Part shown: piece by piece, positions 763 through 23,227 of the stretch
Position numbering within the stretch: position 1 is the stretch's first letter
Layout of the letters: each line of letters begins with the position of its first letter
From: a virus
IMG/VR virus record: IMGVR_UViG_3300044961_000539
Coordinates: 1 to 23,227 of that record
Direction: 5' to 3' (one strand)
Length of the DNA: 23,227 nucleotides
Made by a program: the position numbers and the translations under genes
Notes under the pieces: generated by a model
What the model was told of the DNA's origin: nothing
Database searches by the model: none
Seen by the model: only the letters and a program-made list of their open reading frames with translations

Positions 763-795
763 CGCGAGATTCGCATCAACAACAAGGAGATGATC

Positions 796-1092: not shown

Positions 1093-1499
1093 GCGGCGTG
1101 CGCGTGCCAGGGTTGAATCACGTCGTGCTCGCCGGTCGTCTCGGTCGCGACGCCGTGCTGCGCAGGACCGCATCGGGAGAATCCTGCTGCTCGTTTTCCA
1201 TGTGCAATTCGCGACGGTGGCGTGATGGCGATGCGTGGCGCGAGAAGGCCACGTGGATTGACGTGACACTGTGGCGCGATCATGCCGAGCGGATTGCGCC
1301 GCGCCTGAAAAAGGGTGTTGCGGTCGTGGTCACCGGACGGCTGGAGGAAAACGCATGGACCGGTCGCGACGGGGAGCAGCGGCGCCGCATCGTGCTGGTT
1401 GCGTCCGCCGTTGATCTGCTGGAGCGTGATTCTGATGGTGTTGCGCCTTCGGACTCGCCACCGGTCGCCGGTGTCGAAGACGATGATATTCCATTCTGA
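1089..1499 (+). CDS. ssb: Single-stranded DNA-binding protein (SSB)
   Basis: The 136-residue protein has the OB-fold pattern of bacterial and phage SSB. It opens with NHVVLAGRLGRDAVLR near residue 10, then SFSMCNSR, then TWIDVTLWRDHAERIAPRLKKG and VVVTGRLEENAW, and ends in a short acidic tail finishing DDDIPF. In the family this tail tip recruits replication and repair partners. Length is typical of a compact phage SSB, with a shortened linker between OB fold and tail. It covers single-stranded DNA during phage replication or recombination in the cytoplasm. Its start overlaps the previous stop (ATGA). It sits just upstream of the terminase and packaging genes rather than in a visible replication module. 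Confidence 0.95.
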   Translation: MSGVRVPGLNHVVLAGRLGRDAVLRRTASGESCCSFSMCNSRRWRDGDAWREKATWIDVTLWRDHAERIAPRLKKGVAVVVTGRLEENAWTGRDGEQRRRIVLVASAVDLLERDSDGVAPSDSPPVAGVEDDDIPF

Positions 1500-1514
1500 T
1501 TTTTGCCGTGCACG

Positions 1515-1552
1515 CGGATCGCGGTGCAGTCCTGACCCTGCGCCGCGATCCG
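1515..1552 (+). other. Strong RNA hairpin between ssb and terL
   Basis: Arms at 1515-1529 and 1538-1552 pair over 15 bp (14 Watson-Crick pairs and one possible G-U) around an eight-base loop. No T run follows on either strand, so it is not a standard intrinsic terminator. It fills most of the 78-base gap between ssb and terL and could be an mRNA processing or stabilising structure, or a protein-binding site. The role is inferred; the inverted repeat is read directly. Confidence 0.7.
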
Positions 1553-1577
1553 TTGCGCGGCAGTCGGGCATCCTGCT

Positions 1578-3668: not shown

Positions 3669-3691
3669 CGCTGTGCATGGAGGTGGATGGC

Positions 3692-5302: not shown

Positions 5303-6122
5303 ACTGTGGGCGATTCGCGACGGCTGTGACTGGGTTTTCGACGATCGCGAGATCGCGAAACATTTCGCGGGCGTATCCCGCGCCGCCGCCGATCAGAATT
5401 CGGAGCGATTGGTGTCTGGCGGCGTGGCCGTGATAGATGTTTTCGGCCCGATAGTGCAGTCCGGCGGAATCGGCGAGCGTTATTTCGGCATGGCAAGTTC
5501 ACGCGCCATTGCGGCGCGCGTGCGCGAGGCGATGGCGATGCGTGAAGTTGGCGCAATTCTTTTGCGCGTGGATACGCCTGGCGGCATCGTGAATGGATGC
5601 GGCGAGGCGAGTGATGCGATTTATGAGGCGCGCCGATCCGGCATGCCTGTGGTTGCGCACGTCATGGCGCAGGCGTGCAGCCTCGGCTACTGGCTGGCGT
5701 CGCAGGCGTCCGAGGTCTACGCCGAGCGCACGACCATTGTCGGATGCCTCGGCACGATCATGGTTCTGTATGACACGTCGAAGTATTTCGAGAATCAGGG
5801 CATCGTGCCTCGCGTCATTACGCGGGCGCGGTTCAAGGCCGCCGGCGTCGATGGCGTGCCGCTGGATGATGAGATGCTCGAATATCTGCGTCGCCGCATC
5901 GATGAGGGCGATGCGATGTTTCGCGCCGATGTGCAGCGTGGTCGTGCTGGAATTTCGTGGGACGCCGTCGGTAACGGGCAATACTGGTCGGCCAACGACG
6001 CGCAGATTCTCGGGCTGGTGGACGTCGTGCAGGGCCACGATGCGAGCATGGCCCGCGCGATGTCCCTGGCCTCCATGACATTTTCGCGGCGTAACGCGGC
6101 CTTGCGCGCCCGCATGCTTTGA
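5292..6122 (+). CDS. S49 (SppA/protein C-like) prohead protease
   Basis: The 276-residue protein is a serine peptidase of the ClpP/crotonase fold. It shows ILLRVDTPGG (oxyanion strand), the nucleophile elbow QACSLGYWLAS with Ser130 where the family usually has AAS(A/G), and the GCLGTIMVLYDTSKYFE block that corresponds to the family's GSIGV segment. In HK97-like phages this enzyme removes the capsid delta domain during prohead maturation. The capsid gene next door has a matching N-terminal coiled coil. A GGAGGA sits eight bases before the ATG at 5292, inside the end of the portal gene, which suggests translational coupling. No signal peptide is visible, as expected for the phage form. Confidence 0.92.
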   Translation: MRHELWAIRDGCDWVFDDREIAKHFAGVSRAAADQNSERLVSGGVAVIDVFGPIVQSGGIGERYFGMASSRAIAARVREAMAMREVGAILLRVDTPGGIVNGCGEASDAIYEARRSGMPVVAHVMAQACSLGYWLASQASEVYAERTTIVGCLGTIMVLYDTSKYFENQGIVPRVITRARFKAAGVDGVPLDDEMLEYLRRRIDEGDAMFRADVQRGRAGISWDAVGNGQYWSANDAQILGLVDVVQGHDASMARAMSLASMTFSRRNAALRARML

Positions 6123-6155
6123 TGCGTACTACATCAATGGTGTTTTATTTTCCTG

Positions 6156-6184
6156 TTGACAATGGGATTCGGATGTGTTTTAAT
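6156..6184 (+). promoter_or_regulatory. Sigma-70-type promoter upstream of the capsid gene
   Basis: A perfect -35 TTGACA at 6156-6161 is followed after a 17-base spacer by TTTAAT at 6179-6184 (five of six matches to TATAAT). It lies in the only sizeable non-coding gap of the late region (6123-6315). The local sequence is AT-rich against GC-rich surroundings. Predicted start of transcription is near 6191. It would give the capsid gene extra transcription, or drive a short leader RNA, given the terminator downstream. Confidence 0.7.
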
Positions 6185-6190
6185 TTGACT

Positions 6191-6296
6191 TGGATTTGAA
6201 TCGCTCTGCGCGCAGAAGGCGCGCCGGGCAGCGCAACCCAGAGTCGGGCGCATGTGCGTGGCAATCCTGTTTGCATCGCATGCGCCCGTTTTTTTT
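6191..6296 (+). ncRNA. Putative short leader or small RNA between promoter and terminator
   Basis: The span from the predicted start of transcription to the T run is about 106 nt, has no credible ORF with a ribosome-binding site, and is rich in pairing. GCGCGC repeats separated by AGAAG can form one hairpin near its 5' end, and the terminator stem forms the 3' end. It could be a free small RNA or just the attenuated capsid leader. Only the boundaries are supported by motifs; existence of the RNA is inferred. Confidence 0.4.
6245..6296 (+). terminator. Intrinsic terminator or attenuator directly before the capsid gene
   Basis: Arms at 6245-6254 and 6279-6288 form a perfect 10-bp GC-rich stem (loop 24 bases, with two further pairs possible by bulging). 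The stem is followed immediately by eight Ts at 6289-6296. The capsid Shine-Dalgarno begins six bases later. Transcripts from the promoter at 6156 would stop after about 105 nt unless they read through. This suggests attenuation, antitermination or a stable small RNA. Confidence 0.75.
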
Positions 6297-6315
6297 AACC
6301 CAGGAGAGAACATCA

Positions 6316-7695
6316 ATGACACTTGAAGAACTGACTGCACGGCTGACCGCGATTTCGGAGCGCGGCCGCCAGATTCTCGCGGAGGCAGGAGATGCGCCGT
6401 TGAGCGAGGAAGCGACGGCGGAGATTGATGCGCTGGATGCCGAGAAGTCCGAGATCGAGAGGCAGATTCGCGATCACAATGCGCGCCTTCGTGCGCAGCG
6501 TCTTCAGGATTCCTGCATTCGCGGCGAGGTTGCGGAGAGCGGTGTGCGCCGCATGTCTCCGGTGGCATCGAACCGTCCGCGCATCGAGGTTGGTCGCGAA
6601 GGTTTCGAGCGTGATCCGATGTGCGGCTATCGTTCGCCTGCGGAATTTCTCCGCGAGGTGCGTGCCGTGGCGACGGGTCAGACGACAATCGAGCGTTCGC
6701 GTCGTCTGCTGCCGCTGTTTGGCGGCATCGAGCATGCGGAGAACAGGCTGGAGCTGTACGGGATTTCGAGCAGTGAATTCGCTCGGGAGTCTGTCGGCGG
6801 CGAGGGCGGTTTTCTCGTGCCGCCGCAGATGCGCGAGGAAATTTTCTCCGCGATCAACGGCACGACTTCGCTTTTCAATGTTCTGTACAAGGAGCCGATC
6901 AGCACGAACGCCGTGGAATGGGACGGCGACGAGACCACGCCGTGGGGCGCGTCCGGCATTCGCCCCTACTGGCTTGGCGAGGGCGGTTCGCTCACGGCGA
7001 CAAAGCCGAACGTCGAGAAGCGGATCAATCGCCTGCACAAGGTCGGCGCGCTCGTGAACGTGACCGAGGAATTGAACAGCGACGCGACGCGCCTCAACAA
7101 CGTGATCACGCGACAGGCAGGCGCCGCGCTCGACTACGTCATTTCCGAAGGGTTCTATTCCGGTGACGGCATTGCGAAGCCTGTGGGTTTTTTCGGTCAC
7201 AGTTCGCAGGTGACGGTTGCGAAGGAGACCGGTCAGGCCGCTGGCACGATCAACGCAGCCAACGTCACGAAGATGCTTGCGCGGCGTCGCACGTCGAACG
7301 ATGCGCAGTGGGTGTGGCTGATGAGCGCGAGCGCGTACTCGCAGATCATCACGCTGACCATCGGGTCGTCTCCGGCGTGGACATCGCCCGCGAGCGGATT
7401 GAAGGATGCGCCCGGCGGCATGCTGCTCGGCATTCCGATTGTGATTTCCGAGCATTGCAGCACGCTTGGGACCGAGGGCGACATCGTGCTTGTGAACGCA
7501 CGCGGATACTACGGCATCTATCACAGCACGAGCCTGCGGTTCGATTCAAGCATTCACGTGCATTTCGCGCAGGACATCAGCGCGTTCCGCTGGATCATGC
7601 GCGTTGGCGGAATGCCGTTCCTCCAGAATCCTGTTTCGCCGAAAAACGGATCGCTGACGTACAGCGATTTCATTGCATTGCAGACCCGGTCCTAA
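6316..7695 (+). CDS. HK97-family major capsid protein
   Basis: AGGAGAG at 6302-6308 lies seven bases before the ATG at 6316, giving 459 residues. Residues 1 to about 65 are a charged heptad-like coiled coil, the delta domain normally clipped off by the prohead protease. The mature-type core follows from the family hallmark GGEGGFLVPP at residues 161-170. It continues with AVEWDGDETTPWG, the E-loop-like region, KVGALVNVTEEL, and the C-terminal GGMLLGIPIVISEH and FRWIMRVGGMPF blocks. This is the main shell subunit, assembled with the portal and cut by the S49 protease encoded just upstream. Its own promoter/terminator leader fits a need for separate control of the most abundant virion protein. 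Confidence 0.96.
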   Translation: MTLEELTARLTAISERGRQILAEAGDAPLSEEATAEIDALDAEKSEIERQIRDHNARLRAQRLQDSCIRGEVAESGVRRMSPVASNRPRIEVGREGFERDPMCGYRSPAEFLREVRAVATGQTTIERSRRLLPLFGGIEHAENRLELYGISSSEFARESVGGEGGFLVPPQMREEIFSAINGTTSLFNVLYKEPISTNAVEWDGDETTPWGASGIRPYWLGEGGSLTATKPNVEKRINRLHKVGALVNVTEELNSDATRLNNVITRQAGAALDYVISEGFYSGDGIAKPVGFFGHSSQVTVAKETGQAAGTINAANVTKMLARRRTSNDAQWVWLMSASAYSQIITLTIGSSPAWTSPASGLKDAPGGMLLGIPIVISEHCSTLGTEGDIVLVNARGYYGIYHSTSLRFDSSIHVHFAQDISAFRWIMRVGGMPFLQNPVSPKNGSLTYSDFIALQTRS

Positions 7696-7714
7696 CCGAT
7701 AGGAGTTAATCGAG

Positions 7715-8173
7715 ATGAATCTGACAAGCGCATTGGCGCATGAGGTCGTGGTCCCTGTTGGCGATGTCAATCCGGCGTCGTACAGTGCGGGCACGCAGAC
7801 GACTGGCTGGATTGCCGCGAAAAATTTCACGAAGTTTCTGGCGGTGATCCAGGCCGGTGCACTCGGCACGAACGCCACGCTCAACGCGAAGTTGCAGCAG
7901 GCGAGCGATGGCAGCGGGACCGGCGCGAAAGACATTACGGGCAAGGCGATCACGCAATTCACGCAGGCCGGTACCGATTACAGCGGGAAGACCGCCGTGA
8001 TTTCGCTTGATCCGTCCGAGCTTGATGCCACGAACGGCTTCACGCATTTCAGACTGTCATTTACTGTTGCGACGGCGGCGTCGCTGGTATCCGCGAGTGT
8101 GTACGGCATTGGTGCGCTGTACACGCCTGCGGAGGACTATGGCGCGTCGGATGTTGTGCAGTATGTGAGCTGA
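7715..8173 (+). CDS. Conserved small capsid-adjacent protein, possible decoration protein
   Basis: AGGAG at 7701-7705 precedes the ATG at 7715. The 152-residue protein contains TGWIAAKNFTKFLAVIQAG, then LGTNATLNAKLQQASDGSG, then AKDITGKAITQFTQAG, and later FRLSFTVATAAS. I know this pattern from proteins of unknown function encoded right after the capsid gene in many siphophages. It is beta-rich, with no signal peptide or membrane segment. Position and size fit a capsid-stabilising or decoration role, which is inference. The gene is followed by an 86-base gap holding a large hairpin. Confidence 0.7.
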   Translation: MNLTSALAHEVVVPVGDVNPASYSAGTQTTGWIAAKNFTKFLAVIQAGALGTNATLNAKLQQASDGSGTGAKDITGKAITQFTQAGTDYSGKTAVISLDPSELDATNGFTHFRLSFTVATAASLVSASVYGIGALYTPAEDYGASDVVQYVS

Positions 8174-8201
8174 TCCTCCTGTCGTTCCGTCTCCTCCGAA
8201 A

Positions 8202-8238
8202 GATGCGGCGGCATAACCCGTAGTTATGCCGCCGCATC
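8202..8238 (+). other. Perfect 16-bp stem hairpin between the capsid module and the connector genes
   Basis: Arms at 8202-8217 and 8223-8238 are exact reverse complements with a five-base loop. It is not followed by a T run on the + strand and only by TTT on the minus strand, so intrinsic termination is weakly supported. Upstream at 8174-8199 are two CTCCTC/CCTCCT pyrimidine tracts resembling anti-Shine-Dalgarno sequence. The hairpin separates highly expressed capsid genes from the low-copy connector genes and could protect the 3' end of the capsid mRNA or be a processing site. Confidence 0.75.
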
Positions 8239-8259
8239 GAAAACAGCGGGCGAATAGAG

Positions 8260-8844
8260 ATGACAACAGAATTGATCGAGCCGCCGGTGGTCGAGCCTGT
8301 CAGTGTCGCGGAGGTTCGTTCTCATCTGCGTGTCGATCATACTGATGATGACGCATGGATTTCGTTTGCCATTGGCGCGGCCCGTCAATACATCGAGCGC
8401 ATACAGAACCGCGCCATGATGCGGCAGCGTTGGCGCATGACCGCGCCGTCGTTTGAAAAGATGTTCTGGGCTGGCGTTGCCGCGCTGAGCGTGAATCCTG
8501 TCGCGTCTATTGATGATGTCGCTGTCGCGTACTACGATTCAGAGAACAGCATTCAATCGTTATCGAGTGATGCGCTCGTGTTTATCGGCGGCAGAATAGC
8601 CCGCGTTGCGCTGTCCGGCGATGCGGTGCTGCCTTTGACATATGATCGACCTGATGCGGTTTCTCTGTCATGGTACGCTGGCTATTCGGATTCTAGTGAA
8701 GTTCCATTCGATACGCGCATGGCGATTCTGGAGCATGTGGCGCAGATGTATCACTATCGTGACGGGAATGCACGCGGCAGCGTGAACGCGCTGCGGCACG
8801 GATTGACGGCGATGATCCATTCAGACGCCGATTGGGCAATGTAG
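8260..8844 (+). CDS. Head-tail connector protein (gp6 / phiE125 gp8-like)
   Basis: The 194-residue protein opens with the family-like block VEPVSVAEVRSHLRVDHTDDDAWISFAIGAA followed by a helix ending in IQNRAMMRQRW, and has the late MAILEHVAQMYHYRDGNARG helix. This pattern matches the adaptor proteins that form the first ring below the portal in HK97-like phages. It comes second after the capsid gene, as expected. The Shine-Dalgarno is weak (GAATAGAG just before the ATG). The downstream gene starts two bases after its stop. Confidence 0.85.
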   Translation: MTTELIEPPVVEPVSVAEVRSHLRVDHTDDDAWISFAIGAARQYIERIQNRAMMRQRWRMTAPSFEKMFWAGVAALSVNPVASIDDVAVAYYDSENSIQSLSSDALVFIGGRIARVALSGDAVLPLTYDRPDAVSLSWYAGYSDSSEVPFDTRMAILEHVAQMYHYRDGNARGSVNALRHGLTAMIHSDADWAM

Positions 8845-8845
8845 C

Positions 8846-9415
8846 ATGGTGCGCGCTGATTTGTTGCGGCAGAGCAGCGGCGCATATCGCACGCGATGTG
8901 CCATCCTGCGCCCGTCCTACTCGACGGCAAACGACGGCACTAGCGTCGTTGCATGGACGCTCCACGGATGGCGACACATGGCCATTGAGCCTGTCGCGTC
9001 GAGCGAGATGCGGATTGGTCCGCGCGTGCTGGATGAGAGCGAATGCGTTGCGCGCATGCCGTACGAGCGCGGCATCAAGTCAGACATGCGCGTGTTGTTT
9101 CCTCTGCCGTGCGGCTATCTGACCGCTGGCGCATCGAACGTCGACACCGTCGTCATGGTGACCGGCGGCGATTCGCATCCCGAGTTGCGATCCGGTCCGT
9201 TCCATGCGCGATGCGAGAGCGAGATTCTCCGTGTTACCGGCGGGCACGGCACCGCCACGCTCCATGTGCAGCGAGGCAGATTTGGTACGTCTGCCGCCTC
9301 GCACGCGGCTGGAGTGATGTTTGTGCCGCTGCGCGAATACAACATTAGCGGCGTTATCGATGTCGATGATGCACATGCCGAGCTGCTGCTCGGACTGAAC
9401 GGAGCGCAGAAATGA
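8846..9415 (+). CDS. Probable head-closure (Phage_H_T_join-like) protein with a C-terminal extension
   Basis: Residues 1 to about 95 follow the head-closure pattern: YRTRCAILRPSYSTANDGTS, a WRHMAIEPVASSEM block, then beta strands ending in MRVLFPLP. The gene lies between the connector and the gp10-like tail-completion gene, as in HK97 and SPP1 relatives. Family members are normally about 100-120 residues; this one has 189. The extra 90 residues carry VTGGHGTATLHVQRGRFGTSAASHAAG, which recalls the RGxxGTxAxxHxxG motif I associate with tail and baseplate proteins. The stop overlaps the next start (ATGA at 9412-9415). The assignment rests on weak motif similarity plus position. Confidence 0.6.
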   Translation: MVRADLLRQSSGAYRTRCAILRPSYSTANDGTSVVAWTLHGWRHMAIEPVASSEMRIGPRVLDESECVARMPYERGIKSDMRVLFPLPCGYLTAGASNVDTVVMVTGGDSHPELRSGPFHARCESEILRVTGGHGTATLHVQRGRFGTSAASHAAGVMFVPLREYNISGVIDVDDAHAELLLGLNGAQK

Positions 9416-9975
9416 TCAGCATGCGCGTTGACGGTGCGTTGATGGCGGATGTGCTGCGCCGCTTCAATGAATTGAACGGCGCGGATGCGCGCCGCGCATT
9501 TCACGTTGCTGGTGTTCGGGCGAGCGCGCCGATGGTTGCGGCGTTGCGCGCGGCGGTGCCAGTGCGCACGGGCGCGCTGAAAAAGAACATAGGAATCAGG
9601 CGGGCGCGGCGCGGCGTGCCGCGTGACACGCACAGGCTCGTTATCGCGAGCCGCGACGTGAGCTATGCGCTGGTTCCCGTTTCCGACATTCCGGACGGTG
9701 CGCGATCCGAGTTCATTCGAGCGCTGCGTCGCAGTGGCGCGGCGGGCCGTCGCCGCGTAAATCCATCCAAATACTGGCACCTGGTCTTCGGCGGGACGCG
9801 CCCGCACGCGATCAGGATGAAGCGGAGCGGGATCATTCTTCAGCATCCAGGCGCGCGCGCCAACGATGCGATGCGAAATGTTTTTGCGGCGCAATCCGCC
9901 GGTGTGATCGCTGCGTTCTCCGGCGAATTGCGGCGCGCGATTGAGCGAGTATTTGCGAAAGTGGGGCGCAGATGA
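9412..9975 (+). CDS. HK97 gp10-like tail-completion protein
   Basis: The 187-residue protein has the two landmarks of the family: VPVRTGALKKNIGIRR near residue 46 and a YWHLVFGGTRPH block near residue 121 (YAHxxExGT in relatives). The rest is Arg-rich, and the C-terminus ends in an amphipathic helix. It joins the finished head to the tail. ATGA overlaps link it to both the gene before and the gene after, so its expression is translationally coupled within the head-tail joining cluster. Confidence 0.85.
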   Translation: MISMRVDGALMADVLRRFNELNGADARRAFHVAGVRASAPMVAALRAAVPVRTGALKKNIGIRRARRGVPRDTHRLVIASRDVSYALVPVSDIPDGARSEFIRALRRSGAAGRRRVNPSKYWHLVFGGTRPHAIRMKRSGIILQHPGARANDAMRNVFAAQSAGVIAAFSGELRRAIERVFAKVGRR

Positions 9976-10397
9976 TTACGGCGGATGATGTTTTTCGCGC
10001 CGCTATTCTCGGAGTGCCGGGCGTCAGCGACGTGATTGGAACGGGGCTGAGCGCGTTCAACGGATTTGCGCCGTCGAGTGCGTATCCATGCGCACAGTAC
10101 ATGCGCACGTCGAGCGCAAATCCGCATGCGATGGATGCGCCGGATTCCGTGATTGATGCGCGCTACGATCTGCTTTTCTACGCGACCGTGCGCGCCGATG
10201 CGTGGCGCGCTGCGGATGCGGCATCGAGCGCGTTGAACGGATGGCACGGCGTGGTGACGGTTGGCGATGACTCCGCCGATGTGTACGGCATGTTCATGCG
10301 TGACGCGGCGGAGATTCCAGTTGTTACCGAGGACGGGCAGGAGGTTGGCGATTTTGCGGTGCGCCAGCAGTGGCGCATGTGGGTGAAACTGAACTGA
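9972..10397 (+). CDS. Tail terminator / DUF3168-like protein
   Basis: The 141-residue protein has the fold pattern of tail-terminator proteins: an N-terminal helix, a YPCAQYMRTSS strand, a D-rich turn, and a DARYDLLFYATVRADAWRAADAASSAL block (a strand followed by a helix) that is typical of DUF3168 members. It ends with a beta strand before the stop at 10397. It caps the growing tail tube and fixes its length. Its position, right before the tube gene, agrees. Confidence 0.75.
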   Translation: MITADDVFRAAILGVPGVSDVIGTGLSAFNGFAPSSAYPCAQYMRTSSANPHAMDAPDSVIDARYDLLFYATVRADAWRAADAASSALNGWHGVVTVGDDSADVYGMFMRDAAEIPVVTEDGQEVGDFAVRQQWRMWVKLN

Positions 10398-10410
10398 AGA
10401 GGATTTGATC

Positions 10411-10809
10411 ATGGCATCTACTGCGACTATAGGAAATGGCACCACGATTACATTCGGCACGAGCGCGTTCGCTCCGTCGATCACGGAAATTGCGCAAAGT
10501 GGTGGGCAGACGCGCGCGGCGATCAACACGTCTCACCTTGCCACGAGCGGGTCGCACACGTTTTCGCCGGGCGGCCTGCTCGACAATGGCGCGTTTCGCA
10601 TCACTGGTTTTTTCGATGGTTCGCAGAATCCGCCGGTGAGCGCTGCAGCTGAGACGATCACGATCGCGTGGGCTGGGGGTGGGACTTCGTATGCGTTCAG
10701 CGGGTTCATGACATCGTTCAACATCGAGCCGGTGAAGGTGGATGAACTCATGATGTTCAGCAGCGAAATCAAGATCGCCGGTGCGATTACGAAGGATGTG
10801 ACGCCGTGA
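10411..10809 (+). CDS. Major tail tube protein
   Basis: AAGAGGA at 10397-10403 lies seven bases before the ATG at 10411; the TTG at 10405 in the same frame is less likely. The 132-residue product is Thr/Ser/Gly-rich and strand-rich, with NGTTITFGTSAFAPSITEI at the start and a central motif INTSHLATSGSHTFSPGGLLDNG. This resembles small tube proteins of siphophages that stack as hexamers. Location between the tail terminator and the tail-assembly chaperone supports the call. Its stop overlaps a GTG start. Confidence 0.8.
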   Translation: MASTATIGNGTTITFGTSAFAPSITEIAQSGGQTRAAINTSHLATSGSHTFSPGGLLDNGAFRITGFFDGSQNPPVSAAAETITIAWAGGGTSYAFSGFMTSFNIEPVKVDELMMFSSEIKIAGAITKDVTP

Positions 10810-11162
10810 GTGAATCATTCGTTCGCGTTCGCATATCGAAGCCGGTCGCGCCGCCGCTCGATGCGCTTGCTCCGGACTATCTTGCGAATCATTGCAATCG
10901 TTTCAATGTGCCCGTGTGCGAGGATTTGGAAGTGCTGCAATCGAGGCTTTCGATGTGCAGGGCGATTCCGATATTGCGCGTCGGTCAGGAGGTGGAGCTG
11001 CGTGTTGATGTTGCCGCAGCATATGAGCGCAGCGGCATCGCGGTGGATGCGCGTCTGCCTGTAGAGATCGAGCGGCAGCGCGAGGCGAAGGCGAGGGCAA
11101 TCATAGACGATGCGCGCCGTCGTGTTGCGACCGCGGAGGAGGATGGCAATGAACGCGAGTGA
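10806..11162 (+). CDS. Hypothetical protein, 118 aa, between tube and chaperone genes
   Basis: It begins with GTG at 10806 (GTGA overlap with the previous stop), with AAGGA nine bases upstream. The N-terminal half has Pro-rich and Cys-containing strands; the last 35 residues are a highly charged helix (REAKARAIIDDARRRVATAEE). I do not recognise a family. Its place between tail tube and chaperone suggests a tail-assembly role. The stop lies inside the start of the chaperone gene, a 14-base overlap. Confidence 0.7.
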   Translation: MSESFVRVRISKPVAPPLDALAPDYLANHCNRFNVPVCEDLEVLQSRLSMCRAIPILRVGQEVELRVDVAAAYERSGIAVDARLPVEIERQREAKARAIIDDARRRVATAEEDGNERE

Positions 11163-11499
11163 GCTGCGCCTGAAAATCCTCGCGAGCGATGACATGCGCC
11201 CTGTTGCGGTGTCGGTGCCGGAGTGGGGCGTTGACGTGCACGTGAAGCCGATGAGTACGCGGGCACGCGAGGAATTTGATTTCTGGATCAGCCGCAGCAG
11301 GGCGCAGAACGGGGCGGCGATTCGCGAGCACGTGGTGATGTGGTGCGCGTGTGATTCCGATGGCAACGCGATATTCACGCAGGATGATCTGCCTGCGCTG
11401 AGCGAAAAGTCCTCGGCCGCGATCGATCGAATTTACACGGCAGCATTGGCAATCAATGGTATTGGCGGTGCGGCGGCGGATGAACTGGAAAAAAACTGA
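11149..11499 (+). CDS. Tail assembly chaperone, short (gpG-like) product
   Basis: AGGAGG at 11137-11142 lies six bases before the ATG at 11149, giving 116 residues; the earlier in-frame ATG at 11143 is too close to this site. The protein shows a VPEWGVDVHVKPMSTRAREEF start, DSDGNAIFTQDD, and ALSEKSSAAIDRIYTAALAINGIG. This is the pattern of siphophage tail-assembly chaperones that coat the tape measure. It ends at TGA 11497-11499, just after a slippery heptamer, so a fraction of ribosomes should make the longer GT-like protein. It is followed by the frameshift extension and then the tape measure, the classic order. Confidence 0.88.
   Translation: MNASELRLKILASDDMRPVAVSVPEWGVDVHVKPMSTRAREEFDFWISRSRAQNGAAIREHVVMWCACDSDGNAIFTQDDLPALSEKSSAAIDRIYTAALAINGIGGAAADELEKN
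11490..11496 (+). promoter_or_regulatory. Programmed -1 ribosomal frameshift site (A AAA AAC)
   Basis: In the chaperone frame the codons read GAA AAA AAC TGA, so the heptamer A AAA AAC sits directly before the stop. A run of seven As precedes the C. Slipping back one base enters an ORF that stays open to 11813. The -1 frame continues with a CTG at 11496 and has no ribosome-binding site of its own. Location in a tail chaperone pair before the tape measure is where such sites are conserved. Confidence 0.88.
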
Positions 11500-11813
11500 T
11501 CGAACGCCCGGGCCTGATGTTCCGGTGCGATCTCGCGATCGCGCTGGGCAGGACCCTGGCGGAGATAGGCTGCATGACATCTGGCGAGATTTCGATCTGG
11601 CGCGCATATGACGCGGCGGTTGGCCTGCCGCAGCGGCGCGCCGAGTGGCAGATTGCGAAGGCGATGGCGGGCATGGCGGTGATGCATGGTGGCGCGAAAA
11701 AATTCGATCCGATCCCGTGGTTGCCGCGCAATCCCGTTGATGGCGATGTGATGCATCAGACTGCGGAGGAATCGATGCGCGTGTTTGAATCCATCATAGG
11801 TGTCGATTCATGA
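11496..11813 (+). CDS. Tail assembly chaperone -1 frameshift extension (gpT-like part)
   Basis: This is the -1 frame entered at the slippery site. It encodes 105 residues and, fused to the 116-residue short form, makes a chaperone of about 221 residues. It includes LAEIGCMTSGEISIWRAYDAAVG, then QIAKAMAGMAVMHGGAKKF and DPIPWLP. A stand-alone start at ATG 11517 lacks a Shine-Dalgarno and would lie only 18 bases past the stop of the short form. In lambda-like tails the long form binds the tape measure while the short form recruits tube subunits. Its stop overlaps the tape-measure start (ATGA at 11810-11813). Confidence 0.85.
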   Translation: MIERPGLMFRCDLAIALGRTLAEIGCMTSGEISIWRAYDAAVGLPQRRAEWQIAKAMAGMAVMHGGAKKFDPIPWLPRNPVDGDVMHQTAEESMRVFESIIGVDS

Positions 11814-13696
11814 GTGTCGCTGTTCTCGCAGTGCGGATCGAGGCGGAGTCTGCACGATTCCGCAGGCAGATGCTCGATGCGTCGAACAGCGTGCGATCGT
11901 TCGGCACGTCTGTCGATCGCATATATGGCGGCGTGCGCAATCTCGCGGCATTGCTCGGCGCCGGCTTCGGCGCATACAAGGCTGTTGATGCGTTCAGGCG
12001 CACCGCGCACGAGATGGAGCAGATACTCGATGTCGCGGAAACATTCGGCCTTGCGACGGAATCCGTTGCGCGACTGAAATATGCCGCCGACAAAAACTAT
12101 GCGTCGTTCGAGGCGCTGACAAAGGCGATCGCATTCCAGCAGCGCAGCCTGCGCGCGGCCCGTGATGGCGCGGCGGAGGCGGGTCGCACGTATCAGCGAC
12201 TAGGCATCGACATCGATCGCCTTGCGTCGATGCGCCCGGAGGATGCGTTTCTCGAAGTCGCCGAGGCCCTGAAAAACACCATCGACCCTGCGACCAGGAC
12301 GCAGTCGATGTTCCGCCTGTTCGGGCGGAACGCGATCGAGATTGCGGATACGGTGCTGCTCGGCGCGGATGGATTGCGTCAGATGTTCGCGGAGGCGGAT
12401 CGTCTCGGGCTGACATTCGACGCCGGGATAGGTCATTCCGTGAACGCAATGAACGAGTCGCTTCGTTCCATGCAGGGCGCATTCAGCGGCATGGCGCGCA
12501 CGGTCGTATCCGAGCTTGCGCCGGTCGTGACCGGCGCGGCCGATGCGTTTGTCGAGTTCATGACCGGAGGCGAGGGCATGGCGGAGCGCATGCGCGGATG
12601 GATCGACGCCGTGATCGACAGAACAATTGTGCTTGAAAAGTCACTGCGATCGATCATGTCGGCAGTGGATGGAATCAACAGCGCATTCGCAACGGTGTCA
12701 CGCGCTGCCGATGTGATTGGCGCGGTGAAGGACGTCGGGATCGGATCGCTGTTCGGGCTAGGCAGCGGCATTGTCGGAGCTGCCGGTTCTGTCACGTCGT
12801 GGTTCGGCAATCTGATCGGATCGGATGCGTTGCGCGCAGCCGGTGCGCAGCTGGATGACGACATGAAAACTTTCATGTACACGACCCAGGCCGCGATGGA
12901 AAACGCGAATCGGCGCATGAGAAAGATTACCGGTTCCGGAAACGGTGGCGGCACCGACATCAGGCCCGTGTCTGCGGATGAGCTGCTCAATGGCGTGAAG
13001 TCATCCATTGCGGCATGGCGCGAGGCTGGCGAGCGTCGCATTGCGGAGGCCAATACTGACGCCGCGATCATGGATGTGGCGCGTCAATCCACCATGCTGA
13101 TGCAGGAGGAATTCGACGCGGCGGAGCGGCGCATGAACGAATTGCGGATGAACGCGGAGCGGTTGACGCGCGAAACGCGCACGCCTGCGGAGGTATTCGC
13201 GGACACGCAGCGCGATCTGAACGAAATGCTGGATGAGGGACTTATTTCGTGGGAGACCTATGCGCGTGCCATGGAGCGTGCGGCGCGCGAGATGGAGGGT
13301 GTCGCCGATGCGACTGACGCAACGCGCCGATCGATCAGTGCAATGGCCGGCAGCGGCGACCTTGACAAGGTCGCGTTTGCGTTTGGCGGCGTTGATCGCG
13401 GCGGTGCGACGGCACAGGATGCGCGATGGATTCGTGATCCGCTCGAAACTCCGATAGGCGGATGGAATCCGATCGCGCTTGCGGATGCCGTGCGTGGCAA
13501 GGCCGCGCATGATTATGCGTTTGCCCGCGCATCGCATTTCATACCCGGCGCGCAATCTGAAATGGCGCTTGCCGGAGCGCGATTGATGTCATCCACGACA
13601 GGCATGCGCATCGAGCAGCTCGACACGACAAACGAATATCTGCGCATGATCGCGAATGCGATTTCAACGCGCACAATGATGGCGGTTGCGGTCTGA
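11810..13696 (+). CDS. Tape measure protein
   Basis: The 628-residue protein is Ala-rich and mostly helical. It has a typical N-terminal opening (VAVLAVRIEAESARFRRQM followed by a coiled region) and repeated heptad-like helices. A central hydrophobic glycine-rich segment contains GIGSLFGLGSGIVGAAG near residue 306. A second coiled coil lies around residues 395-505. It is the longest gene directly after the chaperone pair, as expected. At the usual 0.15 nm per residue it predicts a tail of about 94 nm. No peptidase or lysozyme insertion is visible. Confidence 0.92.
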   Translation: MSVAVLAVRIEAESARFRRQMLDASNSVRSFGTSVDRIYGGVRNLAALLGAGFGAYKAVDAFRRTAHEMEQILDVAETFGLATESVARLKYAADKNYASFEALTKAIAFQQRSLRAARDGAAEAGRTYQRLGIDIDRLASMRPEDAFLEVAEALKNTIDPATRTQSMFRLFGRNAIEIADTVLLGADGLRQMFAEADRLGLTFDAGIGHSVNAMNESLRSMQGAFSGMARTVVSELAPVVTGAADAFVEFMTGGEGMAERMRGWIDAVIDRTIVLEKSLRSIMSAVDGINSAFATVSRAADVIGAVKDVGIGSLFGLGSGIVGAAGSVTSWFGNLIGSDALRAAGAQLDDDMKTFMYTTQAAMENANRRMRKITGSGNGGGTDIRPVSADELLNGVKSSIAAWREAGERRIAEANTDAAIMDVARQSTMLMQEEFDAAERRMNELRMNAERLTRETRTPAEVFADTQRDLNEMLDEGLISWETYARAMERAAREMEGVADATDATRRSISAMAGSGDLDKVAFAFGGVDRGGATAQDARWIRDPLETPIGGWNPIALADAVRGKAAHDYAFARASHFIPGAQSEMALAGARLMSSTTGMRIEQLDTTNEYLRMIANAISTRTMMAVAV

Positions 13697-20031: not shown

Positions 20032-20197
20032 CGATCCGGAGCGCGCGCCGCACACCGTCGGTAATCGTGCCGTTCCTGCTGATCATTGCGGCACGCGCAC
20101 GGTCGCACGGCGTCATGTAGATCGTCACCGGCCCGCCGCGACCGCCTGATTCACCATCAATTCGCTTTCGCCCGGCGCGTGATCTATTCGTATTCAT
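19985..20197 (-). CDS. Small ribbon-helix-helix-like DNA-binding protein, 70 aa
   Basis: GGGAGAG lies four bases before the ATG at 20197. After a basic Ser/Gly-rich N-terminal arm of about 20 residues comes GGPVTIYMTP (a candidate beta strand, residues 23-29). Next is a helix CDRARAAMIS, a turn RNGTITD, and a second helix GVRRALRIVIEEM. This order is that of Arc/MetJ-type repressors, which bind operators as dimers through the paired strands. It is the last gene of the minus-strand operon, and its 3' end runs antisense to the end of terS. Its first eight codons and ribosome-binding site are duplicated at 21088-21124. DNA binding is inferred. Confidence 0.65.
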   Translation of the reverse strand: MNTNRSRAGRKRIDGESGGRGGPVTIYMTPCDRARAAMISRNGTITDGVRRALRIVIEEMAAGQADPARD

Positions 20198-20209
20198 GGC
20201 GCTCTCCCG
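20173..20209 (-). repeat. 37-bp direct repeat, copy 1 (translation-initiation region)
   Basis: Exact 37-bp match to 21088-21124. Read on the minus strand it comprises the GGGAGAG ribosome-binding site, the ATG and the codons for MNTNRSRA of the RHH-like gene. Identity stops abruptly on both sides, which suggests segmental duplication of a gene start. Confidence 0.9.
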
Positions 20210-20248: not shown

Positions 20249-20878
20249 TCATGCCGCCGCCAGCAGCAGCCGCAAAATCTCGACCCTGCCGTATGATCGT
20301 GCCAGGTCGATGATCGCGCCGTCCTGCGCGTGCGCATTCGCACCAGCCGCGAGCAGGATGCGCACGTTTTTGGTGCGCTCCGTGAACACGGCGTTCCAGA
20401 GCGGCGCATCATCCCGCGCGTGGACGTCCGCGCCAGCCGCGAGCAGGATGCGCACGACGTCCGCGCACATGCGCATCGCGGCGCTGCGCAGCGGCGCATC
20501 ATCCTGCGCGTGGACGTCCGCGCCCGCGGCGAGCAACAGGCGCACGATGTCCGTGCGGCGAAAAATCGCTGACCACCGCAATGCAGCGTCATCATCCGCA
20601 TGCACGTCTAAACCAGCGCCGATCAGCATCCGCAGCGCACCAGCGTCTGAGTGCTCGATCTGCCGCAGCAGTTCCGGCGTCAGCACAGTCACGTCCGCGC
20701 CCGCGTCGAGCAGTGCGCGGCACCAGACCTGGCGGCGCGCCATTGCCCACGCGGCCCACTCCGGCGAATGGCGCAGCAACTCCCGCCACGTGCGGCGGCT
20801 CGCGCTCACCCAGTCCAGTGCCTCGGTGCACGCGCACATCTGTCGCGCAGTGATAATGTCTGACGTTTTGATTCGCAT
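20249..20878 (-). CDS. Ankyrin-repeat protein, 209 aa
   Basis: The start at 20878 is chosen because GAGGAA sits eight bases upstream, just after hammerhead ribozyme A; the frame stays open upstream but only through the ribozyme and an out-of-frame remnant. Residues 1-85 form a helical N-terminal domain with Trp-rich DWVSASRRTWRELL. Four consecutive units of exactly 30 residues follow at 89-118, 119-148, 149-178 and 179-208, with consensus GADVHAxDDAPL...DVVRILLAA. This is the ankyrin helix-turn-helix, three residues shorter than the usual 33. Ankyrin repeats bind proteins, and phage-encoded ones may target host factors; the target is unknown. The protein ends right after the last repeat. No signal peptide or enzyme domain is seen. 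Confidence 0.85.
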   Translation of the reverse strand: MRIKTSDIITARQMCACTEALDWVSASRRTWRELLRHSPEWAAWAMARRQVWCRALLDAGADVTVLTPELLRQIEHSDAGALRMLIGAGLDVHADDDAALRWSAIFRRTDIVRLLLAAGADVHAQDDAPLRSAAMRMCADVVRILLAAGADVHARDDAPLWNAVFTERTKNVRILLAAGANAHAQDGAIIDLARSYGRVEILRLLLAAA

Positions 20879-20894
20879 TTCGATGTTTCCTCGG

Positions 20895-20981
20895 TTTGCG
20901 CCTCGCGGCGCGGCCTCGTCAGTGGCGGCACTCACCGCCAGACTGTGCCAGTACACTGGCACAGTTTCGGCCTGTCGCGGC
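20895..20981 (-). repeat. 87-bp direct repeat, copy A (ribozyme plus downstream hairpin)
   Basis: Matches 22034-22120 over 87 bases with a single mismatch, located in the loop of the small downstream hairpin. The repeat covers the entire ribozyme, the hairpin and the start of the A-rich leader, but not the flanking coding sequence. This indicates recent duplication or gene conversion of the ribozyme cassette. Confidence 0.9.
20912..20972 (-). ncRNA. Type II hammerhead ribozyme A, upstream of the ankyrin gene
   Basis: Read on the minus strand from 20972: GGCC (stem II 5' strand), GAAA, stem III of ten perfect pairs with a two-base loop, GTC, stem I of six pairs (TGGCGG/CCGCCA) with a six-base loop, CTGACGA, GGCC (stem II 3' strand). 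All invariant core positions of the hammerhead are present, and self-cleavage is predicted after the C of GTC, between 20941 and 20940. Open stem II defines type II. A GCGCC-GCGA-GGCGC hairpin with a GNRA loop follows at 20898-20911, then the ankyrin Shine-Dalgarno. The core's TGA also ends the upstream ankyrin remnant frame. Confidence 0.92.
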
Positions 20982-21086
20982 GGGCGCGCCGTAGTCCATG
21001 AGCATCTCCACGATGTCGGTGCGATCGCACTCGCGGGCCCTGTGCAGTGATCCTCGTGTCGGTCTCGTCCCCATGGCGAGCAGCAT
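20919..21086 (-). pseudogene. Ankyrin-repeat remnant
   Basis: A minus-strand frame of 55 codons begins MLLAMGTRPTRGSLHRAREC and continues with DRTDIVEMLMDYGAPA. That is one recognisable ankyrin unit (the LHxA and DIVxxLxxxGA pattern). It then runs into ribozyme A and stops inside its core. It has no Shine-Dalgarno of its own. It directly follows the second copy of the 37-bp gene-start repeat, which is in another frame. It looks like the tail of a deleted ankyrin gene joined by recombination to a duplicated gene start. Confidence 0.6.
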
Positions 21087-21087
21087 T

Positions 21088-21124
21088 CGGCGCGTGATCT
21101 ATTCGTATTCATGGCGCTCTCCCG
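21088..21124 (-). repeat. 37-bp direct repeat, copy 2 (orphan translation-initiation region)
   Basis: Identical to 20173-20209. It supplies GGGAGAG and an ATG at 21112 encoding MNTNRSRA, overlapping the stop of the 69-aa gene (ATGA). After eight codons the resemblance to the RHH-like gene ends and the sequence becomes ankyrin-like in a different frame. It is best read as a truncated duplicate start rather than a working gene. Confidence 0.85.
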
Positions 21125-21318
21125 GTCGCGTGCGCGAGATGCTCGCGCATCACGTCGACAGCGGCGCGGTGAAGAACCGCGAGATGCCCATCCATCGGTT
21201 TAAGTTCGGCCAGCTGCGCTGTCGCGATGCGGATCATGTCTGGGCTGGTCCTGTCGCTGGCGATGATCGCACGGAGCATCACCATGTCGCGCATTCTCAT
21301 GCAATCATGATCTGTCAT
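21109..21318 (-). CDS. Hypothetical protein, 69 aa
   Basis: The ATG at 21318 lies within the last codons of the 236-aa gene (14-base overlap), so translation is probably coupled; no strong Shine-Dalgarno is seen. A start at ATG 21300 is possible. The protein is Met-rich and predicted helical (MRMRDMVMLRAIIASD, then a helix ending in DVMREHLAHA). I recognise no family. Its stop overlaps the ATG of the duplicated gene start at 21112. Function unknown. Confidence 0.55.
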   Translation of the reverse strand: MTDHDCMRMRDMVMLRAIIASDRTSPDMIRIATAQLAELKPMDGHLAVLHRAAVDVMREHLAHATGRAP

Positions 21319-22015
21319 TGCACCATTCTTTCGACGCGATCGCGTCGCGGATTATGTCTCGAATATCATCGCGCGACATGCACGACGATATCGTGATGCT
21401 GACGCAGTTCAGTCCTGCGCCGCCATGCAGGCGCGTGCACAGGAAAAGCTCGTTCGATGCCGGATGCCAGCAGATGCGCGCATCCACGGCATCGGCGCAT
21501 TCGCGTATCAACTCGTCGCGCATGCGAACTGCATCGCGAATCAGCGAATCGATCTGCGCATGCCGATCTAGCTCACTAGCGCACTCCTCCACCTCCGCTG
21601 CCAGGAGTTTTTCTCCGCGCTCGCGCAGGCGCGCCGCATGTTCGAACGCTTCGTCGGCTGTGGTCAGAACATAAGCCGTGTCACCATCGTGGCGGAGCCA
21701 CTCGATTGAGGCAGATAGCCAGATGTCGTCGGGGTCCGCATCCGGCGGGAGCGGCACGTACTCGTCCCGCTCCGTTATTCCGTAGGCAGTATAGACTGTA
21801 GTTCCGTCGCCGTACCGAGCCGCCAGGGCATCAGCGAGGTCCTCCCATCCGTTTTCTCGGAGTTGTTCTGGTGTAGTCAGGTAGAAGATCGTGTCATTTG
21901 TCGAAGCTGATGCGTTCTCCGCCATCTCGATGATGGTGTCAGTCGCGAGCACATCAGCGTGCGTCGCACGGTGTCGCGTGCCATGCACCAGAATCAGATA
22001 GTTGTTTAGCGTCAT
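21305..22015 (-). CDS. Hypothetical protein, 236 aa
   Basis: GGAGG followed by an A-rich spacer precedes the ATG at 22015, just after ribozyme B; the frame extends a few codons upstream into the leader, but that GTG lies within the ribozyme's downstream hairpin. The first 75 residues look like an alpha/beta domain (NNYLILVHGTRHRATHADVL, later DTIFYLTTPEQL). The middle is acidic (PLPPDADPDDIW), followed by a long charged helix rich in Glu and Arg (FEHAARLRERGEKLLAAEVEE). A strand-rich C-terminus contains three Cys. No family, signal peptide or membrane segment is recognised. It sits in the ribozyme-punctuated accessory operon between ribozymes B and A. Confidence 0.75.
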   Translation of the reverse strand: MTLNNYLILVHGTRHRATHADVLATDTIIEMAENASASTNDTIFYLTTPEQLRENGWEDLADALAARYGDGTTVYTAYGITERDEYVPLPPDADPDDIWLSASIEWLRHDGDTAYVLTTADEAFEHAARLRERGEKLLAAEVEECASELDRHAQIDSLIRDAVRMRDELIRECADAVDARICWHPASNELFLCTRLHGGAGLNCVSITISSCMSRDDIRDIIRDAIASKEWCNDRS

Positions 22016-22033
22016 GTTATTTTCCTCCGTTTT

Positions 22034-22120
22034 TTTGCGCCTCACGGCGCGGCCTCGTCAGTGGCGGCACTCACCGCCAGACTGTGCCAGTACACTGGCA
22101 CAGTTTCGGCCTGTCGCGGC
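22034..22120 (-). repeat. 87-bp direct repeat, copy B (ribozyme plus downstream hairpin)
   Basis: Partner of 20895-20981 with one mismatch. Its 5' end coincides with the G of the pentapeptide gene's TAG stop, so the cassette begins exactly at the end of the coding sequence. Confidence 0.9.
22051..22111 (-). ncRNA. Type II hammerhead ribozyme B, between the pentapeptide and 236-aa genes
   Basis: Minus-strand order: GGCC, GAAA, stem III (CTGTGCCAGT paired with ACTGGCACAG), GTC, stem I (TGGCGG/CCGCCA), CTGACGA, GGCC. The predicted cleavage lies between 22080 and 22079. It starts eight bases after the TAG of the pentapeptide gene. It is followed at 22037-22050 by a GCGCC-GTGA-GGCGC hairpin (GNRA loop), an A run and the GGAGG of the 236-aa gene. 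The core is identical to copy A. Confidence 0.93.
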
Positions 22121-23001
22121 TAGTCCTCCAGCCCGATGGCGTCGGTCAGATCGGCGCCGTCGAGCACGGCGCCGTCGAGGTCGGCGCCGGTGAGGTCGGC
22201 GCCGTCGAGGTCGGCGCCGTCGAGGTCGGCGCCGGAGAGCACGGCGCCGCGGAGGCGCGCGCCGCTGAGGCGTGCGCCAATGATGTACGCGCCGGAGAGG
22301 TTCGCGCCGTCGAGCACGGCGCCGGTGAGGTCGGCGCCGTCGAGTTCGGCGCCGTCGAGGTCGGCGCCGGAGAGCACGGCGCCGCGGAGGCTCGCGCGGC
22401 TGAGGTCGGCGCGCTTGATCAACGCGCCGGAGAGGTTCGCGCCGTCGAGGTCGGCGCCGCTGAGGCGCGCATCAGTGAGGGTGGCGCCGCGCATGTCGGC
22501 GTTGCGCATGTCGGCGCGCTTGATCAACGCGCCGCTCAGCACGGCGCCGTCGAGCACGGCGCCGTCGAGGTCGGCGCCGTCGAGTTCGGCGCCGCGCATG
22601 TCCGCGCGGCGCAGGCACGCGCCGCTGAGGTCGGCGTTGCGCAGCACGGCGCGCTCGAGGTCGGCCCCGGTGAGTTTCGCGCCTTCGAGGTCGGCGCCGT
22701 CGAGGTCGGCGCCGCGCATGTCCGCGCCGTCGAGGTCGGCGCCGTCGAGGTCGGCGCCGGTGAGGTCGGCGCCGTCGAGCACGGCGCCGCGCATGTTGGC
22801 GCCGGAGAGCACGGCGTCGCGGAGGGTGGCGCAGGTCAAGTCCGCGGCGACGAGGTCGGCGCCGCGGAGGTCCGCGCGGCGCAGTTCCACGCCCTCACGC
22901 ACCGCAGCCTCCACAGCGCGGGCGATGGTGTCGGCGGCGCCGCTCCACAGCGGTGCGCCAAACATATCGTGGATCGTCATCGTGTTCGTTGTCATTTCCA
23001 T
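22120..23001 (-). CDS. Pentapeptide-repeat protein with 50 uninterrupted units, 293 aa
   Basis: AGGAGA lies about seven bases before the ATG at 23001, downstream of ribozyme C. Residues 1-40 are a helical cap (IHDMFGAPLWSG then ADTIARAVEAAVREGVEL). Residues 41-290 are 50 consecutive pentapeptides of the form (D/S/T/R)GA(D/V/N)L without a single break, and the protein ends LED. Such arrays fold as a right-handed quadrilateral beta-helix, here about twelve coils. Some family members (Qnr, MfpA, McbG) mimic DNA and bind gyrase; others have unrelated or unknown roles. Many Asp at the second-last position give an acidic surface, compatible with DNA mimicry, but this is inference. The Qnr-type loops are absent. 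Confidence 0.92.
   Translation of the reverse strand: MEMTTNTMTIHDMFGAPLWSGAADTIARAVEAAVREGVELRRADLRGADLVAADLTCATLRDAVLSGANMRGAVLDGADLTGADLDGADLDGADMRGADLDGADLEGAKLTGADLERAVLRNADLSGACLRRADMRGAELDGADLDGAVLDGAVLSGALIKRADMRNADMRGATLTDARLSGADLDGANLSGALIKRADLSRASLRGAVLSGADLDGAELDGADLTGAVLDGANLSGAYIIGARLSGARLRGAVLSGADLDGADLDGADLTGADLDGAVLDGADLTDAIGLED
22132..22881 (-). repeat. 15-bp tandem coding repeats of the pentapeptide array
   Basis: The DNA consists of 50 near-identical 15-base units, many reading GTCGAGGTCGGCGCC on the + strand. Several neighbouring units are identical at the DNA level, which points to recent expansion by slippage or unequal recombination. The array also keeps a long antisense frame open on the + strand, which is a by-product. 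Confidence 0.9.
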
Positions 23002-23034
23002 GTCCGTTCTCCTGTTGTTGCGCCCCAGGGGCGC

Positions 23035-23096
23035 GGCCTCATCAGTGGCGGCACTACCGCCAGACCGCGCAGCACAAGGGCTGCGCGGTTTCGGCC
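23035..23096 (-). ncRNA. Type II hammerhead ribozyme C, upstream of the pentapeptide gene
   Basis: Minus-strand order: GGCC, GAAA, stem III CCGCGCAGC paired with GCTGCGCGG around CCTTGT, then GTC, stem I TGGCGG/CCGCCA with a five-base loop, CTGATGA, GGCC. Stem III differs completely from copies A and B yet is fully paired, and the only core change is at the freely variable position 7 (T for C). Predicted cleavage lies between 23063 and 23062. It begins five bases after the stop of the preceding gene. It is followed directly by a GC hairpin at 23020-23034 and the AGGAGA of the pentapeptide gene. Confidence 0.93.
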
Positions 23097-23101
23097 TGCT
23101 G

Positions 23102-23227
23102 TCAGGCGTACCGCGAGGCGTCGCCAAACACGTTGTCGTCGTCGACCCACGGCGTGACGCCGCCGCCGTCAACGTCGGCGATAATCTCGCTAACCTTTGC
23201 GATCAAAATCCAGCCCGGCGCCATCCC
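23102..23227 (-). CDS. C-terminal part of an unknown protein, cut by the window edge
   Basis: The minus-strand frame is open from 23227 to a TGA at 23102-23104. It shows 41 residues including GWILIAKVSEIIADVDGG and a tail VTPWVDDDNVFGDASRYA. A Met at the second visible codon could be a start, but the gene may equally continue beyond the window. No family is recognised. It is the first visible cistron of the minus operon, and its stop lies five bases before ribozyme C. Confidence 0.55.
   Translation of the reverse strand, partial: GMAPGWILIAKVSEIIADVDGGGVTPWVDDDNVFGDASRYA

What the first reader, a model, noticed from the sequence alone, without database searches (positions are those of the whole stretch)
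20912..23096. Three type II hammerhead ribozymes punctuate a phage accessory operon
Three minus-strand elements each contain the complete hammerhead core (GAAA, GUC, CUGANGA), paired stems I, II and III, and stem II as the open helix. All three lie between cistrons in the same orientation as transcription, and each is followed by a small hairpin, a Shine-Dalgarno sequence and a start codon. Hammerheads, including type II, are known from bacteria and phages, but I know of no description of a serial use as intercistronic cutters of a phage repeat-protein operon. Self-processing of the polycistronic RNA would let each cistron have its own 5' leader and stability.
Basis: partly seen in the sequence, partly recalled or inferred. 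Interest (0 to 1): 0.95.

Follow-up and report, generated by a model that had tools for sequence, protein, structure and literature searches.

The report
Three phage self-cutting RNA elements
A phage operon carries three genuine self-cutting "hammerhead" RNA elements placed just in front of successive genes; this is a well-supported example of an arrangement described in 2011 and common in phages, so it is sound but not new.

Summary
Three minus-strand type II hammerheads lie at 23096-23035, 22111-22051 and 20972-20912. A covariance model built from 25 other phages' hammerheads, none from this window, finds exactly these three in the 23 kb (63.4, 53.9 and 53.9 bits; E 1.9e-14 or better). Rfam's own type II model finds only the first, below its cut-off.

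Each element is followed directly by a hairpin, a Shine-Dalgarno sequence and an ATG. A related phage contig keeps the middle element, although the gene behind it has diverged to about 34% amino-acid identity.

The novelty claim fails. Perreault et al. 2011 described clustered hammerheads (types I, II and III) flanking single genes in prophages, proposed processing of phage polycistronic RNA, and showed cleavage by tandem sets in vitro and by one triple set in E. coli. My scans found many more clusters, up to 11 in one phage.

Best explanation: intercistronic self-processing of an accessory-gene transcript. In these elements cleavage is inferred, not shown.

A side finding may be worth more. 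In about a quarter of sampled relatives, the sequence after stem II is complementary to the catalytic core CUGAN and covaries with its free base N. The window's elements carry a plain hairpin there instead.

The parts
23035..23096 (-). E1, type II hammerhead: stem II GGCC/GGCC, GAAA, stem III, GUC, stem I with UAGUG loop, CUGAUGA; predicted cut 3' of 23063
   Evidence: R1 63.4 bits, E 2.4e-17; RF02276 31.7 bits; hammerhead is the minimum-energy fold
23020..23034 (-). Tail hairpin GCGCCC-CUG-GGGCGC abutting stem II of E1
   Evidence: Fold; tail-hairpin scan
23009..23013 (-). Shine-Dalgarno AGGAG, 7 nt before ATG 23001
   Evidence: Sequence
22120..23001 (-). Gene 1, pentapeptide-repeat protein, 293 aa
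   Evidence: PF00805 E 1.7e-82
22051..22111 (-). E2, type II hammerhead; predicted cut 3' of 22080
   Evidence: R1 53.9 bits, E 1.9e-14; fold z -4.3; same ribozyme at the same junction in L122
22037..22050 (-). Tail hairpin GCGCC-GUGA-GGCGC (GNRA loop) abutting stem II of E2
   Evidence: Fold
22024..22028 (-). Shine-Dalgarno GGAGG, 8 nt before ATG 22015
   Evidence: Sequence
21305..22015 (-). Gene 2, 236 aa, no known family; a homologue follows the same ribozyme in L122
   Evidence: No Pfam, PHROG or phage-record match; BLASTP 34% over 172 positions, E 2e-19, to the L122 gene
21109..21318 (-). Gene 3, 69 aa, no known family
20912..20972 (-). E3, type II hammerhead, near-identical copy of E2; predicted cut 3' of 20941
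   Evidence: R1 53.9 bits, E 1.9e-14; repeat D3, 99% over 87 nt
20898..20911 (-). Tail hairpin GCGCC-GCGA-GGCGC (GNRA loop) abutting stem II of E3
   Evidence: Fold
20889..20892 (-). Weak Shine-Dalgarno GAGG, 10 nt before ATG 20878
   Evidence: Sequence
20249..20878 (-). Gene 4, ankyrin-repeat protein, 209 aa
   Evidence: PF00023 E 9.6e-15
23102..23227 (-). 3' end of the cistron upstream of E1, open at the contig end

Best explanation
Three authentic type II hammerhead ribozymes, most likely active, punctuate a minus-strand accessory operon of a tailed phage. As the polycistronic RNA is made, each cuts itself after GUC (23063, 22080, 20941). The upstream cistron then ends in a 2',3'-cyclic phosphate behind stem III, and the downstream cistron begins with a 5'-hydroxyl, the stem I hairpin and the tail hairpin, followed by its Shine-Dalgarno sequence and AUG. 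I infer that this gives each accessory gene its own leader and decay rate. Shown here: the ribozyme architecture, its covariation in relatives, its position before a start codon, and its persistence in a related phage. Inferred: that these copies cleave, and the benefit for expression or stability.
For: Independent model hits for all three, with zero hits of the structural descriptor on reversed control sequence. In 25 relatives 98.9% of pair cells are standard pairs, against 69.4% shuffled, with 121 double-sided changes against 35.5. In a non-circular test on pattern-only hits, stem I is 5/5 Watson-Crick in 105 of 124 against 2.9 when arms are reassorted, and stem III beyond C-G is 4/4 in 72 of 124 against 3.8. 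Context in relatives: a Shine-Dalgarno plus start codon within 60 nt downstream in 109 of 142 distinct elements, against 17% at random same-strand positions and 5 of 142 on the opposite strand; an upstream frame ends nearby in 131 of 142, median offset -1. No record has ribozymes on both strands. L122 keeps the E2 ribozyme at the homologous junction. Comparable tandem sets cleave in vitro, and one triple set in E. coli (PMC3088659).
Against: No RNA data exist for this phage. Stem I loop to tail pairing is at most 3 Watson-Crick pairs in all three, so the usual stabilising pseudoknot is not evident and cleavage in low magnesium may be slow; 4 of 18 consensus hammerheads tested in 2011 showed no activity. 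E3 lies in a degenerate context and is a recent copy of E2, so it may be a passenger. No sigma-70-like promoter was seen in the last 3.4 kb; the operon's start is off the contig. Relatives were selected with a GGCC stem II, so they say little about stem II itself.
Confidence: 0.7

Rival explanations
1. The ribozymes are chiefly homology joints of exchangeable accessory-gene cassettes: a ribozyme plus the gene behind it moves as a unit, and persistence reflects recombination rather than selection for cutting.
For: E2 and E3 share 87 nt at 99%. L122 joins an E2-type ribozyme to an E1-type tail and leader, and similarity to the window ends just behind the ribozyme. The E3-ankyrin stretch is bounded by perfect 37-nt direct repeats 915 nt apart, and L122 has no ankyrin gene or second ribozyme there.
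Against: Stems vary with compensatory changes while the core stays fixed across relatives; a mere homology joint would not keep catalytic residues. Strand and position relative to start codons are constrained.
Confidence: 0.12
2. Paired cuts release gene-bearing RNA segments (E1-E2, E2-E3) that are circularised by ligation of their 5'-OH and 2',3'-cyclic phosphate ends.
For: Successive hammerheads in one orientation generate exactly such ends; RNA circles with hammerheads are known elsewhere (PMC7761336, listed).
Against: Perreault et al. looked for spliced or circular products of bacterial tandem sets and detected none. Each element is tied to a downstream start codon, which circles do not explain.
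Confidence: 0.06
3. Regulated rather than constitutive cutting: the tail hairpin or a ligand shifts the ribozyme between active and inactive folds.
For: In many relatives the tail is complementary to the core CUGAN and covaries with it, so an alternative fold seems to be kept by selection in the class.
Against: The window's own tails do not pair with the core; their hairpin coexists with the hammerhead in the minimum-energy folds of E1 and E2.
Confidence: 0.08
4. Inactive hairpins that merely protect mRNA ends or terminate transcription.
For: Very stable stems.
Against: Invariant catalytic residues and GUC in all three and in 135 of 137 sampled hits; no terminator-like site at these places on this strand.
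Confidence: 0.03

Closest known systems
Clustered hammerheads of prophages (Perreault et al. 2011, PMC3088659), including the triple set around ardA in Agrobacterium tumefaciens
   Same: Several hammerheads flanking single genes or short gene blocks of a phage region; proposed cutting of polycistronic RNA into operon- or gene-length mRNAs
   Different: Different neighbouring genes; the 2011 sets were shown to cleave, these were not tested
Rfam RF02276 Hammerhead_II
   Same: Architecture, core and element order; E1 matches end to end at 31.7 bits
   Different: Below the gathering score of 37; E2 and E3 not reported. 4-bp GGCC stem II, 7-pair stem I ending in U-G, no clear loop I-tail pseudoknot
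Phage type II hammerheads with GGCC stem II (IMG/VR scan here, e.g. L007 with 11 in its record, L142 with 6)
   Same: Same stem I form, same core, same place between stop codon and Shine-Dalgarno
   Different: Most lack the abutting GC-rich tail hairpin; many have a core-complementary RUCAG tail instead

Membership tests
Hammerhead ribozyme | Conserved core CUGANGA, GAAA and NUH (GUC) cleavage triplet | tested here: met
   All three exact
Hammerhead ribozyme | Three helices closing the core, supported by covariation | tested here: met
   Folds; covariation in relatives; compensatory stem III differences between E1 and E2
Hammerhead ribozyme | Self-cleavage at the predicted site | not testable with these tools
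   Needs transcription in vitro
Type II hammerhead | Stems I and III closed by loops, stem II open | tested here: met
   Order GGCC-GAAA-III-GUC-I-CUGANGA-GGCC
Rfam RF02276 Hammerhead_II | Score at or above the gathering threshold of 37 bits | tested here: not met
   E1 31.7 bits, E2 and E3 not reported. R1, built from other phage type II hammerheads, scores all three far above chance
Type II hammerhead (common, not defining) | Pseudoknot of 4 or more pairs between loop I and the 3' tail | tested here: not met
   At most 3 Watson-Crick pairs (4 if G-U is counted) in each window element; in the sampled GGCC class such pairing is no more frequent than with reassorted tails, 20 against 20.6 of 169
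Clustered prophage hammerheads of Perreault et al. | Two or more hammerheads flanking single genes or short gene blocks in a phage | tested here: met
   Three in 2.2 kb on one strand; phage terminase, portal and head genes in the window

The most novel reading that the evidence does not exclude
Phage type II hammerheads carry a built-in second state: after or in competition with cleavage, the sequence behind stem II folds into a hairpin next to stem I, sequestering the core (CUGAN with NUCAG) in many relatives or standing alone (GCGCC-GNRA-GGCGC) in this window. This would make cleavage timed or irreversible and leave each mRNA a two-hairpin 5'-OH leader.
Probability: 0.3. Interest if true: 0.6.

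Novelty: new member of a known kind. Interest (0 to 1): 0.33.

Why it matters
It adds a well-conserved case to the unexplained association of self-cleaving ribozymes with phage accessory genes. The comparison shows that serial use is widespread: up to 11 type II hammerheads in one phage, and 7 in 5 kb of a Singulisphaera chromosome. It also exposes a covariation between the core's free base and the sequence behind stem II that makes a function beyond cutting testable.

Tried and rejected
Rfam at gathering threshold: no match, so an independent model was built. Loop I-tail pseudoknot as the missing tertiary contact: not above chance in the GGCC class. Link to repeat proteins as a rule: rejected, because genes behind such ribozymes are varied. 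Near relatives among annotated phages: none by DNA; for the terminase protein only identities below 60%, the listed best at about 39%; none for gene 2. Gene 2 family in sequenced bacterial and archaeal genomes: none, so no host assigned. L123, identical to the window over 13,665 bases, does not reach the ribozyme region and its 26 kb record has no hammerhead. Two apparent exceptions to the core-tail covariation (L124, L125) were read and judged not to be hammerheads, because the stems are missing. Promoter and terminator scans were uninformative.

Full report
WHAT IS THERE. The window is a whole virus record of 23,227 bases. Its plus strand encodes a tailed phage's packaging, head and tail genes: terminase, portal, S49-type head protease, major head protein, connector and neck proteins, tail assembly chaperone, tape measure. 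The last 3 kb carry a minus-strand operon that enters from beyond the right end. Its order is: end of an unknown cistron (stop 23102), E1, pentapeptide-repeat gene, E2, gene 2, gene 3, ankyrin-like fragment, E3, ankyrin-repeat gene, a small gene.

CHECK OF THE OBSERVATION. The core pattern occurs three times in the window, all on the minus strand, against 0.10 expected. Rfam's type II model sees E1 only, below its cut-off. I therefore built a covariance model, R1, from 25 type II hammerheads of other phages chosen for equal length, excluding the window and its relative L122. R1 finds exactly E1, E2 and E3 in the window, at E 2.4e-17, 1.9e-14 and 1.9e-14, and nothing else up to E 10. The minimum-energy folds of E1 and E2 are textbook hammerheads; E3 keeps stems I and III but puts stem II in another register. 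Between E1 and E2 stem III changes with pairing kept.

IS THE CLASS REAL? In 124 distinct matches stem I pairs 5/5 in 105 (2.9 with reassorted arms) and stem III pairs 4/4 beyond C-G in 72 (3.8 reassorted). A full structural descriptor finds 137 elements and none in the same sequences reversed; 135 have GUC. In the model alignment 13 of 18 pairs show changes on both sides and 98.9% of cells pair.

CONTEXT. Of 142 distinct elements, 131 have a Shine-Dalgarno and start codon within 200 nt downstream (median 30 nt) and 109 within 60 nt; random positions on the same strand give 45% and 17%, and the opposite strand 29 and 5 of 142. An upstream frame ends at a median of 1 nt before the element in 131. 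No record has elements on both strands. The genes behind 124 such elements are short and mostly of no known family; the few matches are methyltransferases, DUF932, HTH, ParB-like and similar accessory genes. With R1, whole records hold 11 (L007's), 7 (L039's), 6 (L142's) or 2-4 hammerheads. The Singulisphaera sp. GP187 genome yields 7, all within about 5 kb; only 150 candidates of the first look were scored there.

CONSERVATION OF THIS LOCUS. L122, a related phage contig, carries pentapeptide gene, hammerhead and a gene 2 homologue in the same order. Its ribozyme matches E2 throughout, while the gene 2 proteins are 34% identical over 172 positions. The L122 tail, Shine-Dalgarno and spacer match E1 instead of E2, so it is a mosaic. 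In the window, E2 and E3 share 87 nt at 99%, and the E3-ankyrin block lies between perfect 37-nt direct repeats 915 nt apart. L122 shows neither an ankyrin gene nor a second hammerhead behind gene 2. I infer that ribozyme-plus-gene blocks are gained and exchanged as cassettes. This does not conflict with an RNA function.

MECHANISM. Best supported is co-transcriptional self-cleavage between cistrons, leaving each downstream mRNA with a 5'-OH, two hairpins (stem I and tail hairpin), the Shine-Dalgarno sequence and AUG. Architecture and context are shown; cleavage and the effect on expression are inferred. A 5'-OH with a terminal hairpin is expected, from general knowledge of bacterial RNA decay, to resist 5'-end-dependent decay; I did not test this.

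COMPARISON WITH THE LITERATURE. Perreault et al. [quoted passage not shown] tumefaciens set cleaves in E. coli. Natural type II hammerheads were first described there. A 2023 paper repeats that bacterial self-cleaving ribozymes are enriched near Mu-like phage genes and near each other for unknown reasons (PMC10085705).

SIDE FINDING. In many relatives stem II is followed by RUCAG, complementary to the core's CUGAY. The core's N, free in the ribozyme, follows the tail base: 22 C with GTCAG, 20 T with ATCAG, 3 C with GTTAG and one exception in the first sample; 47 of 47 in the enlarged sample with a stricter tail window, permutation mean 26.6, maximum 37. Across all IMG/VR, exact-pattern scans find 45 stretches with C-G and 19 with T-A. 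Mismatched combinations give 0 and 1; a scan with A or G at N and any tail base gives 1. The two single hits, L124 and L125, lack the hammerhead stems on reading. The result is a hairpin CUGAYG-AGGC-CRUCAG next to stem I that cannot coexist with the active core. It could refold the 3' product or switch the ribozyme off. The window's elements lack it and have a GC-rich hairpin at the same place; only a few relatives do. I did not find this pairing in the text passages of the 2011 paper that I read, but I cannot see its figures and have not searched the whole literature.

LIMITS. Related sequences inflate counts. No host could be assigned. Orthology of genes across phages rests on order and pairwise similarity.

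Noticed in passing
IMG/VR relatives, e.g. L026, L036, L059, L077, L108: The tail RUCAG after stem II is complementary to the hammerhead core CUGAN, and the free base N covaries with it (47 of 47; 64 matched stretches and no genuine mismatched hammerhead in whole-collection scans). It suggests a conserved alternative hairpin exclusive with the active ribozyme.
   Followed up: partly
L007 (its record: 11 elements), L142 (6), L039 (its record: 7), L200 (Singulisphaera sp. GP187, 7 in 5 kb): Much longer same-strand series of type II hammerheads than in the window.
   Followed up: partly
window 20173-20209 and 21088-21124: Perfect 37-nt direct repeats, 915 nt apart, bound the ankyrin fragment, E3 and the ankyrin gene; L122 shows no ankyrin gene or second ribozyme behind gene 2. 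Looks like a gained or duplicated cassette.
   Followed up: partly
window 20249-21112 (minus): A 287-codon frame runs open through E3 into the ankyrin gene, so an uncut RNA could encode a longer fusion; probably a by-product of high G+C, since E1 is also open into its downstream gene.
   Followed up: no
window 1-13665 and L123: An IMG/VR contig identical over 13,665 bases extends about 8.3 kb further upstream, so the same or a near-identical phage was assembled in another record.
   Followed up: no
window 21305-22015 (minus): Gene 2 (236 aa) is an orphan with one detected homologue, in L122, and no match in Pfam, PHROGs, annotated phages or sequenced genomes.
   Followed up: partly
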